Below, in pieces: positions 20,042 to 28,085 of a stretch of DNA of 63,620 bases (its first letter is position 1; every line of letters begins with the position of its first letter). The translations under genes were made by a program, and so were the position numbers. Source of the DNA: an uncultured Erysipelotrichaceae bacterium (lineage in GTDB: Bacteria > Bacillota_I > Bacilli_A > Erysipelotrichales > Erysipelotrichaceae); assembly GCA_902793635.1 (NCBI GenBank), contig CADBEA010000009.1:1-63620 (forward strand), read 5' to 3'. The notes beneath the pieces were generated by a model. The model did not search any database. It was not told the DNA's origin and saw only the letters and a list, made by a program, of their open reading frames with translations.

Positions 20042-20734
20042 ATGAAACTGAAGGCACTGAAAGCAGCTTTTCCATATACCATTCCGATCTTCGCGGGATT
20101 CTGGTTTCTCGCCCTTGCCTACGGTATCTACATGAACGTGTCCGGCTTCAGTTTCTGGTATCCGTTCCTGATGAGCATCACGATCTTCGGCGGTTCGCTG
20201 GAGTTTGTCGCTGTCAGTATGCTGCTGGCTCCGTTTGCGCCGCTGCAGACATTCATCATGGCTCTTCTGGTACAGGCAAGACACCTGTTCTACGGCATCT
20301 CCATGCTGGACAAATATAAAAACATGGGCTGGAAGAAGTTCTATCTGATCTTCGCCATGTGTGACGAATCCTTCTCGATCAATTACACAGCCGAGATTCC
20401 CGAGGATGTTGACCGCGGCTGGTTCTATTTCTGGGTTTCCCTGCTCAATCAGTCCTACTGGGTCAGCGGTGCCCTGATCGGCGGTCTGACCGGCTCTCTG
20501 CTGAAGTTCAATACCGCAGGTCTCGACTTCGTCATGACGGCGATGTTCGTTGTCATTTTCATGGAACAGTGGATGAAGCAGAAAAAACATCATACCGGCC
20601 TGATCGGCATCGGCTGTACGGCACTGTGTCTGTATTTCTTCGGCAGCACATCTTTCATGGTGCCGGCCATGATCCTGATCATTGTCATTCTGCTTGCCTT
20701 CCGCAAACCGCTGGAAGAAGGAGGTCTGCAATGA
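20042..20734 (+). CDS. azlC: Branched-chain amino acid exporter, large subunit (AzlC)
   Basis: A 230-residue membrane protein with about six helices, matching Azl[21 protein letters not shown] at the start, [24 protein letters not shown] (about 79-90) and CDESFSINY. With AzlD it exports branched-chain amino acids or analogues. GAAAGG lies ten bases before the ATG, and a TACAAT box is about 25 bases upstream. It diverges from the gcv operon. Confidence 0.92.
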
Positions 20735-21066
20735 GCCCGATGACCTTACCGCAGCAGATCATGACGATCGCCCTCTGTGTCATTGCGACGATGCTGACAA
20801 GATTCCTGCCCTTCCTTGTCTTTTCGGGAAAAAAGGAAACGCCGCAGACCGTCCAGTATCTCGGCAAAGCCCTGCCGCTGGCGGTATTCGGCATGCTGGT
20901 GGTGTACTGCCTGAAGAATGTGTCCTTTCTTTCCGGCAGCCATGGCATTCCCGAACTGGCCGCGATTGCTGTAACGATCCTGATTCACAAATGGAAACGG
21001 CAGATGCTGCTGTCAATTGCCGCCGGCACTGTCTGCTACATGTTCCTGATTCAGATCATCTTCTGA
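20731..21066 (+). CDS. azlD: Branched-chain amino acid exporter, small subunit (AzlD)
   Basis: A 111-residue membrane protein with four helices, typical of AzlD ([13 protein letters not shown] and [15 protein letters not shown]). It overlaps the azlC stop by 4 bases (ATGA) after a GGAGG inside azlC, so it is coupled. Length is normal. Confidence 0.92.
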
Positions 21067-21095: not shown

Positions 21096-21101
21096 TATAA
21101 T
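21096..21101 (+). promoter_or_regulatory. -10 box for the GG-leader peptide gene
   Basis: A perfect TATAAT, 41 bases before the ATG at 21143, with no good -35 hexamer at 16-18 bases upstream. This gives the small gene its own transcription start downstream of azlD. Confidence 0.5.
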
Positions 21102-21142
21102 ATCTGCGAAGGCATACAGCCGGAAGAAAGGATCATAATCAT

Positions 21143-21322
21143 ATGGAAGACAAAAAAATCAGAGATGAATCCCTTCTGGAAGTCAGCGGCGGAAAATGGA
21201 CCTTTGATACATTGACACCGGAAGAAAAGGAAAGATTCAATGAGGTAAGCACCGGTCTCACAAGAGAATGGGATTATATCTCATACAATGAATTCATTCA
21301 CGAAATGAACGCGAAATACTAG
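21143..21322 (+). CDS. Small double-glycine leader peptide (bacteriocin-like or signalling)
   Basis: A 59-residue ORF. Residues 1-17 look like a double-glycine leader: charged start and LLEVSGG ending in Gly-Gly at 16-17, the processing site used by C39-peptidase ABC exporters. The remaining 42 residues (from KWTFDTLT to the end) are acidic and aromatic with no Cys. A purine-rich ribosome binding site (GAAAGGA) precedes the ATG by ten bases; a TATAAT box is upstream and a strong terminator follows the stop. No exporter, peptidase or immunity gene is seen nearby in the window. It could be a bacteriocin precursor, a signalling peptide, or an unrelated small protein with a chance motif. Confidence 0.55.
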   Translation: MEDKKIRDESLLEVSGGKWTFDTLTPEEKERFNEVSTGLTREWDYISYNEFIHEMNAKY

Positions 21323-21343
21323 CAGACTGAAAAATCCGCAAAC

Positions 21344-21371
21344 AAAAAAGCCGAATGATTCGGCTTTTCTT
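21344..21371. terminator. Bidirectional terminator
   Basis: Stem AAAAGCCGAA / TTCGGCTTTT with a 3-base loop, with T-runs on both strands. It serves the GG-leader peptide on the plus strand and the carboxymuconolactone decarboxylase-like gene on the minus strand. Confidence 0.85.
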
Positions 21372-26297: not shown

Positions 26298-26641
26298 TAC
26301 CGTCACTCCCCTGCCTTCACCTTTCGGCTGATTTCATTATAGAACAAAACCTCTGGCCGTCTGATTTATGTGAGCCATCATCAGATTTTCAAAACGACAG
26401 TTAACATACCATGCTGCATGTTGTATAAATATCTATCCCTGCTGAGGCCCTGGCCGAGGCAGGCTAAAATTTTTATAGGTCATGCCTGGTTTTAAAAATG
26501 CCGGACTGATCTGATCTTTTCGTCGTGATTTGGCAGTCTTATCCAAATATTTAAAATAAGGCTTGACAGATATTAGCAGGTTTATCTATTTCCTTGTCAT
26601 CAATGTCACGCACTCCACATGCGTTGCTTCAGGTGACATAT
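26298..26641. other. Gene-free, AT-rich stretch bordering decayed accessory DNA
   Basis: No ORF with supporting signals is present. A GC-rich imperfect hairpin at 26438-26463 (CCTGC / GCAGG outer and GGCC / GGCC inner pairs) is followed, after two bases, by AAAATTTTTAT and could be an old plus-strand terminator. A lone TTGACA at 26563 has no matching -10 box. Composition shifts to AT-rich here. Confidence 0.5.
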
Positions 26642-27811
26642 CTACTCATTTCTGATTGTTTCCGCAACACCTGTGTAATGAATGTATCTGCAGTTATGAA
26701 ATGATTCATAATAATCACCACAGTACACCACCGTCATTTCTCCGGAATTCACTTCACTGCTGCAGAACATTTTCATATTTCTGGCAAAATCTTTGTTAGG
26801 GGTCATAGAGGACTTTATCTCAAAAGGAAACAGCATCCCTTCCTTTTTCAGAATCAGATCTATTTCAATGCCCTTTTCTGTCCTTACATAGTAAAGATTT
26901 GGTTCTCTGTTATCATTCAACCGTGTTTTCATTGCCTCAAGAACGACAATATTTTCAAATAAATTTCCCCTGAGCGGATCTCTGGATGCCTGACGAGCAC
27001 TCTCGATTCCAAGAAGATATGCCGCCAGACCCGGTTCAGTAAAATATACTTTAGGTGATTTTACAATCCTCTTACTGATATTTGAAAAATAAGGCTGCAG
27101 TCTGAACACAACAAAGGAGTCTTCCAATACAGAAAGCCATTCACTAAGCGTAGTTGATGATACTCCAACTTCTCCTGACATTCCGGAAAGGTTAACAACC
27201 TGCCCTGCTCTTCCGGCAAGCAATGTTAAAAATCTTAAAAATGCATTTAAGTCTTTCACCGCAATCATCTGGCGTAAATCTTTTTCAATATATGTATCCA
27301 GATAATCTCTGTAGTACACATATGGATCTCTTGCGTTTTCCAGATATTATTCCGGCATGAATCCTCGAATTATATTTTCGTCTAAGTCTTCCAGTTTTCC
27401 ACTTTTCACTATTTCTTCAAGACTAAGCGGAAGTAATGTGTGAATAGTCGTTCTTCCTGCCAGTGACTGTGCCACTGCCTCACGCAGTCTCGGCTGATGA
27501 CTGCCGGTCAGAATAAACCTCCCGTTCTTCCTTCTGTCCTCATCCACTTTAACCTGAATAGCTGAAAGAAGCTCCGGTACACGCTGCACTTCATCAATGA
27601 TCATAGGTTCGCTGTATCTCTTAAAGAAACCAATATAATCATTCTCAGCCAGTTCTCTTGTGGCTTTATCCTCAAGATTAACATAGGTATAATCCGGAAA
27701 AAGTTCTCTTACCAGAGTAGTCTTACCGGCCTGATGCGGTCCTAAGACTGTGACGACAGGGACCTGCGATATGCTTTTTTCTATCTTATCCGCAATTATT
27801 CTCTCAATCAT
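26642..27811 (-). pseudogene. AAA ATPase with DUF4143 domain, interrupted by an in-frame stop
   Basis: The AAA_14/DUF4143 type of ATPase: Walker A in GPHQAGKTTL (about 20-29), Walker B in MIIDEVQRVPEL, then a DUF4143/restriction-like C-terminal half with TEKGIEIDLILKK and FEIKSS. The reading frame continues across 27347-27349, but that codon is TAA, between FMPE and YLENARDP, so translation would stop after 155 residues. The downstream half has no good start. Start chosen at the ATG after AGAAGGGC. Such ATPases are frequent accessory genes of uncertain role. Either a real nonsense mutation or a sequencing error; the domain content is clear. Confidence 0.85.
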
Positions 27812-28085
27812 AAAAGCCCTTCTTTCTTGATATGTCATATGCTCAACGGGCGTAATATTCAAGTTCAATTTGAATATTACGCCCAATAAACCAATCGTTC
27901 ATATTGCTTTCCCAGATGTCAAAGACCTGTACAAGTTTGCCGTCGGCTAAGGGCGCCAGGCTGACTGCGTTCGAGGCTGCGATGTTGTTCTCCTGTCTTT
28001 TGCAACTTAAGGCTCATCAGCGTCCAGGAGTTTTCTTCTGCCAGCCTCCTTTTCTCGAAATTCTTGGGTTGTGATTTTCACTTTT
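27812..28085. other. Remnant DNA between the ATPase and the RepA fragment
   Basis: On the minus strand an open frame ending at 27843 encodes a peptide with VSLAPLADGKLVQVF and DIWESNMNDWFIGR but has no start codon or ribosome binding site. It looks like the C-terminal end of a lost protein; I do not recognise the family. Nothing else is seen. Confidence 0.4.

What the first reader, a model, noticed from the sequence alone, without database searches (positions are those of the whole stretch)
21143..21322. Orphan double-glycine leader peptide downstream of azlCD
A 59-codon ORF with LLEVSGG at residues 11-17, its own TATAAT, a ribosome binding site and a strong terminator. The acidic, Cys-free 42-residue remainder does not look like a classical class II bacteriocin, and no C39 exporter or immunity gene is nearby. 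It could be a new type of secreted signal or bacteriocin-like peptide exported by a transporter elsewhere in the genome.
Basis: partly seen in the sequence, partly recalled or inferred. Interest (0 to 1): 0.62.

Follow-up and report, generated by a model that had tools for sequence, protein, structure and literature searches.

The report
Orphan double-glycine secreted peptide gene
This is a real small gene for a 42-residue peptide that a gut bacterium very probably cuts from its double-glycine leader and exports through an ABC exporter encoded elsewhere in the genome; it is one of at least eleven such peptides there, belongs to a so far unnamed cargo family, and its job outside the cell is unknown.

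Summary
The ORF (21143-21322, 59 codons) is real. Orthologues keep the frame and substitutions are mostly silent (dN/dS about 0.07 against L004). The Gly-Gly is invariant in 13 of 13 family members, and all 13 have hydrophobic residues at leader positions -12, -7 and -4, the positions that C39 peptidases read. The genome has one C39 exporter, at G000:C30: an NHLM-type ABC1/ABC2 pair (TIGR03796/TIGR03797, both over cut-off) with the catalytic Cys, His and Asp present. All nine genus members with the peptide have this exporter, against 17-18 of 70 overall (Fisher 4e-7 to 7e-7, not tree-corrected). The peptide is not a singleton: at least ten other genes with a similar leader but different cargos lie scattered in the genome, and in relatives it also sits among further GG precursors. 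The azlCD link looks incidental, since the peptide sits in other contexts elsewhere. No Pfam, NCBIfam or PHROG family matches the cargo. Best reading: an orphan GG peptide, exported unmodified as a small helical hairpin. Its function is inferred only (competition first; signalling or envelope protein as rivals). New cargo family of a known kind.

The parts
21096..21101 (+). TATAAT, -10-like hexamer upstream of the peptide gene
   Evidence: sequence; same hexamer in L004, TAAAAT in L003; no -35 match, no promoter-like site by scan
21127..21132 (+). ribosome-binding site AAAGGA, 10 nt before the ATG
   Evidence: sequence; conserved in L003 and L004
21143..21193 (+). leader MEDKKIRDESLLEVSGG (17 aa) with I(-12), L(-7), V(-4), G(-2), G(-1)
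   Evidence: recognition positions from PMC6363468 and PMC7018657
21194..21319 (+). predicted cargo KWTFDTLTPEEKERFNEVSTGLTREWDYISYNEFIHEMNAKY (42 aa, net charge -4, no Cys), predicted helices at residues 26-40 and 45-58
   Evidence: no Pfam, NCBIfam or PHROG family
21320..21322 (+). TAG stop, early compared with relatives (KYG plus 1-2 residues in most) through a local indel
21346..21368 (+). terminator-like hairpin AAAAGCCGAATGATTCGGCTTTT
20042..20734 (+). azlC (PF03591, E 5e-39); neighbour, probably not part of the system
   Evidence: the peptide lies elsewhere in G165, G204, G212, G219, G246, G301 and G314
20731..21066 (+). azlD (PF05437, E 2e-28); neighbour, probably not part of the system

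Best explanation
The gene makes a 59-residue double-glycine precursor. Its 17-residue leader is recognised (I-12, L-7, V-4) and cut after Gly17 by the C39 peptidase domain of the only C39 exporter found in the genome, the NHLM-type ABC1/ABC2 pair on contig C30. The exporter releases the 42-residue, acidic, cysteine-free cargo, which is predicted to fold as a two-helix hairpin. No modification enzyme lies beside it, so it is most likely unmodified. It is one of a pool of at least eleven GG cargos that share one exporter. Shown: a conserved, selected ORF; invariant GG and leader positions; an exporter with its catalytic residues in the genome; the exporter in every genome found with a close member of the family; clustering with other GG precursors in relatives. 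Inferred: the cleavage, the export, and an extracellular role, for which competition between neighbouring bacteria is my first guess.
For: One PF03412 hit in the genome, on C30. The gene scores 936 bits against TIGR03796 (cut-off 853), and the next gene is TIGR03797 over cut-off. The C39 domain keeps C (ALECGA), H (NHFVVL) and D (NDPARG), as do the exporters of all eight other peptide-bearing genus genomes. Nine of 70 genus genomes have the peptide at E<1e-5 and all nine have this exporter, against 17-18 of 70 overall (Fisher 4e-7 to 7e-7). Two genomes of another genus with close members (G301, G314) also have a C39 exporter. GG16-17 is invariant in 13 members. Ten other GG-leader ORFs in the same genome include C4 (MDNRKLHEEELNAVSGG) and C30 (MEDNKEIKIEDLADVSGG). 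In G240:C11, G301:C9 and G314:C271 the peptide lies among other GG precursors. Published mutants show that -4 and -7 matter while -5 and -8 do not (PMC6363468). AlphaFold model: leader helix 3-15, break at the GG, helices 26-40 and 45-58, mean pLDDT 75.
Against: No expression, cleavage or secretion data. Co-occurrence is not corrected for shared ancestry. Position -8 is Ser, not the usual Glu. A distant relative in G180 (E 2e-7 in the local search) has SDG where the others have GG. The cargo is as conserved as the leader (64% against 64% mean pairwise identity), which is unlike fast-diversifying bacteriocin cores. No immunity gene is seen nearby. The window copy has lost its last residues.
Confidence: 0.72

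Rival explanations
1. It is a secreted signal (pheromone): same leader and exporter, but the mature peptide is sensed by the same species.
For: Strong conservation of the cargo within the lineage. GG peptides include pheromones (PMC7018657).
Against: No sensor kinase or Rgg-type regulator was seen next to any copy among the ORFs listed (judged by eye, not systematically searched). The 42-residue cargo is long for a pheromone.
Confidence: 0.15
2. It is a cell-surface or envelope peptide delivered by the exporter, as proposed for the MAM protein of Faecalibacterium.
For: MAM is a GG-leader cargo, proposed to be exported by a C39 exporter, found in the cell envelope (PMC12184118). The cargo here is conserved and no immunity gene is seen.
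Against: It is much shorter than MAM and no sequence comparison with MAM was made. It is present in only 9 of 70 genus genomes, so it is accessory.
Confidence: 0.15
3. It is a RiPP precursor modified by an enzyme elsewhere before export, as for the Nif11 and NHLP precursors that these exporters are named after.
For: The exporter is of the NHLM type, associated with modified peptides (PMC2887384).
Against: The cargo has no Cys; no modification enzyme is seen beside any copy; the leader is short and matches neither the NHLP nor the Nif11 model. The genome was not searched for LanM, YcaO or radical-SAM maturases.
Confidence: 0.08
4. The Gly-Gly is incidental and the small protein works inside the cell.
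For: No secretion data; one distant relative lacks the pair.
Against: GG invariant in 13 members, co-occurrence with the exporter, clustering and one in-frame fusion with other GG precursors.
Confidence: 0.06
5. The window copy is a decaying gene: the early stop and the absence of the second exporter found beside the relatives' copies mark loss.
For: A local indel removes the C-terminal G and what follows. Synteny with L004 ends near 26511, just before the second exporter.
Against: The rest of the frame is intact, there are only 8 nucleotide differences from L003, and the second exporter has a C39 domain without its catalytic Cys and His anyway.
Confidence: 0.06

Closest known systems
Orphan double-glycine (GG) peptides of peptidase-containing ABC exporters (streptococcal rtg/blp/com pools; PMC7018657)
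   Same: Short leader ending in GG with hydrophobic -12, -7 and -4; several cargos served by one exporter; gene remote from the exporter
   Different: No quorum-sensing locus seen beside it; -15 is Asp, not hydrophobic; the cargo matches no named family; a different bacterial family
NHLP/Nif11 precursors with the NHLM exporter (TIGR03793, TIGR03798, TIGR03794, TIGR03796, TIGR03797; PMC2887384)
   Same: The exporter genes of this genome are TIGR03796 and TIGR03797 over cut-off; one exporter with many scattered precursors
   Different: Short leader (17 residues) not matching the NHLP or Nif11 model; cargo without Cys; no modification enzyme seen
Class II bacteriocins with GG leader (TIGR01847, TIGR03949)
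   Same: Leader pattern LxxVxGG; probably unmodified peptide
   Different: Cargo acidic and conserved, no immunity gene seen; leader model not matched by the window peptide
MAM of Faecalibacterium (PMC12184118)
   Same: GG-leader cargo of a C39 exporter in a gut Firmicute, not a bacteriocin by sequence
   Different: Different leader (MMMPAN...VxGG), much longer cargo, exporter adjacent

Membership tests
GG peptide (substrate of a C39 peptidase-containing ABC exporter) | short N-terminal leader ending in Gly-Gly | tested here: met
   17 residues, GG invariant in 13 members
GG peptide (substrate of a C39 peptidase-containing ABC exporter) | hydrophobic residues at -12, -7 and -4 | tested here: met
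   I6, L11 and V14 in the window; I/L at -12, L/I at -7 and V/I at -4 in all 13 members (alignment); positions from PMC6363468 and PMC7018657
GG peptide (substrate of a C39 peptidase-containing ABC exporter) | C39 exporter with catalytic Cys/His/Asp in the same genome | tested here: met
GG peptide (substrate of a C39 peptidase-containing ABC exporter) | cleavage after GG and export | not testable with these tools
   needs biochemistry
NHLP/Nif11 precursor | match to an NHLP or Nif11 leader model | tested here: not met
   no NCBIfam match to the window peptide; none of these models among the matches of the 10 aligned members
NHLP/Nif11 precursor | export by an NHLM-type system | tested here: inconclusive
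   genes present; use not shown
Class II bacteriocin | match to a bacteriocin leader or core model | tested here: not met
   no Pfam or NCBIfam hit at E<1 for the window peptide; one aligned member at E 0.087 to TIGR03949
Class II bacteriocin | adjacent immunity gene | tested here: not met
   neighbours are azlD and a convergent 260-codon gene; contexts differ in relatives
Class II bacteriocin | antibacterial activity | not testable with these tools
   needs an assay

The most novel reading that the evidence does not exclude
The peptide founds an unnamed cargo family, with an aromatic residue just after the GG, an L[TS]xEE stretch and a KY(G) end, of small exported helix-loop-helix peptides whose conserved extracellular function is neither killing nor known signalling. 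Its members share one NHLM exporter with a dozen unrelated cargos, and in some relatives they sit beside a second exporter whose C39 domain has lost its catalytic Cys and His, which would carry or gate uncut cargo.
Probability: 0.2. Interest if true: 0.65.

Novelty: new member of a known kind. Interest (0 to 1): 0.4.

Why it matters
It shows that Erysipelotrichaceae of the gut and rumen can carry a scattered set of GG-leader genes that match no family in the libraries searched, with one exporter whose natural substrates are unknown. The leader pattern plus co-occurrence with the exporter gives a way to list the whole set of exported peptides, and the exporter's C39 domain gives a direct one-tube test of each.

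Tried and rejected
Pattern counts alone are a poor measure, because Rossmann-type starts (VVIGGG) also match: all 70 genus genomes match. Exporter-positive genomes are still denser (8.4 against 4.9 net matches per Mb, Mann-Whitney 8e-5), which is indirect. The apparent C-terminal KYG resemblance to paralogues on C4, C25 and C42 did not survive a profile test; only their leaders are alike. A functional link to azlCD is rejected, since the context changes between genomes. Processing by the neighbouring second exporter of relatives is rejected: it is absent from the window genome and its C39 domain has Asn for Cys and Tyr for His. Weak profile matches to PDB chains (3fgg 0.0013 with no single stretch passing; ISWI SANT 0.06; calmodulin EF-hand 0.2) and the single Foldseek match at E 8.5 are not evidence of kinship. 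No relative was found in plasmids (one consensus-like query) or viral contigs. Two first literature searches found nothing.

Full report
Observation. The ORF at 21143-21322 is real and reads MEDKKIRDESLLEVSGGKWTFDTLTPEEKERFNEVSTGLTREWDYISYNEFIHEMNAKY. It has an AAAGGA ribosome-binding site 10 nt before the ATG, a TATAAT without a -35 partner, and a 10-bp terminator hairpin. Two relatives carry it at the same azlCD site (93% and 86% identity) and one at another site (58%), without indels over the 59 residues. Window against L004 differs at 3, 4 and 22 first, second and third codon positions (dN 0.08, dS 1.10), so the frame is under purifying selection.

Leader. The last 12 leader residues are IRDESLLEVSGG: Ile at -12, Leu at -7, Val at -4, Gly-Gly. 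These are positions read by C39 peptidases; in LahT, charged residues at -4 or -7 abolish or strongly reduce cleavage while Glu -5 and Glu -8 are dispensable (PMC6363468; PMC7018657). Ser at -8 is therefore no objection. Gly-Gly is invariant in 13 family members.

Exporter. The genome has one PF03412 domain, on contig C30. The gene is TIGR03796 (936 bits, cut-off 853); the next is TIGR03797 (718 bits, cut-off 709); a short HlyD-like gene precedes them (23.8 bits against TIGR03794, far below its cut-off). Similar short genes precede the exporter in relatives, so I do not read it as broken. The catalytic Cys, His and Asp are present here and in the exporters of the eight other peptide-bearing genus genomes.

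Co-occurrence. A profile of the peptide finds it in 9 of 70 genus genomes at E<1e-5, with three copies in G240. All nine are among the 17 genomes with TIGR03796 over cut-off, or 18 counting G201 with a full-length C39 domain in a fragmentary frame. One-sided Fisher tests give 4e-7 and 7e-7. These are not corrected for relatedness. An order-wide search adds two genomes of another genus (G301, G314) with close members; both have a C39 exporter.

A pool of cargos. A pattern of ribosome-binding site, ATG and hydrophobic-x-GG matched 102 places in the genome against 29 for the reversed control. Reading the candidates gives ten further in-frame GG-leader ORFs: C4, C6, C25, C30, two on C37, two on C42, C56 and C57. 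Their leaders resemble that of the window peptide; their cargos do not. One on C37 has a weak lantibiotic match (NF000539 E 6e-4, below cut-off). In relatives the window-type peptide lies among other GG precursors (G240:C11, G301:C9, G314:C271), and in G240:C11 it is fused in frame behind another GG precursor, with a possible internal start (GGAGGAG).

Cargo. Forty-two residues, net charge -4, no Cys. Twenty residues are invariant over 12 close members, sixteen of them in the cargo, and cargo and leader are equally conserved. AlphaFold gives two helices, 26-40 and 45-58, at moderate confidence from three sequences. No Pfam, NCBIfam or PHROG family matches, and there is no useful structural match. 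Remoter relatives (L175, L185, L176, L136, L169) keep the L[TS]xEE stretch and mostly end in KYG or KY. Eleven of the twelve other members extend past the window's KY stop as KYG plus one or two residues, and L156b ends KYK; the window stop is brought early by a local indel.

Surroundings. azlC and azlD are confirmed but are probably incidental: in G212 and G204 the peptide lies beside what I read by eye as ribosomal protein genes, and elsewhere in other contexts. In L003 and L004 a second NHLM-type exporter pair lies 5-7 kb away; the C39 domains of three such exporters (a third is in G201) have Asn for Cys and Tyr for His. The homology of the window with L004 stops near 26511, just before that pair.

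Conclusion. Export by the C30 exporter is well supported by inference and not shown by experiment. That the cargo is unmodified is inferred from the lack of Cys and of neighbouring enzymes. Its action is not known; competition is my first guess, with signalling and an envelope role (as proposed for MAM, PMC12184118) as rivals. Orphan GG peptides are a known kind; the cargo family is new to the libraries searched.

Noticed in passing
L147:6464-8644, L148:13542-15722, L149:2174-4357: A second TIGR03796-like exporter (about 600 bits, below cut-off) has a degenerate C39 domain, Asn for the catalytic Cys and Tyr for the His. In L147 and L148 it is paired with an ABC2-type gene and lies 5-7 kb from the peptide gene; L149 has a different GG precursor at 216-506. 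Absent from the window genome.
   Followed up: partly
L155:4570-4953 (G240:C11): Two GG precursors in one open frame: a Cys-containing cargo followed by a window-type peptide with its own leader and a GGAGGAG before an internal ATG.
   Followed up: partly
window 21318-21325: The window copy stops after KY while the other members go on, mostly as KYG plus 1-2 residues; a local indel shifts the stop.
   Followed up: yes
window 26642-27886: An ATPase-like gene split into two ORFs on the minus strand (27347-27886 and 26642-27319), at the place where relatives carry the second exporter.
   Followed up: no
L121:2295-2558 (own genome, contig C37): A Cys-containing GG precursor with a weak lantibiotic match (NF000539 E 6e-4, below cut-off); no lanthionine synthetase seen in the 5 kb fetched.
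   Followed up: no
L002:4516-5232 (own genome, contig C30): A GG-leader ORF about 5 kb from the exporter with a much longer cargo, including a Listeria-Bacteroides repeat (PF09479 E 2e-6); its 3' end may be frameshifted.
   Followed up: no
L188 (G180:C5) and G180:C19: A distant relative of the peptide occurs twice in G180 with identical scores; the C5 copy reads VSDGD where the family has GG.
   Followed up: partly
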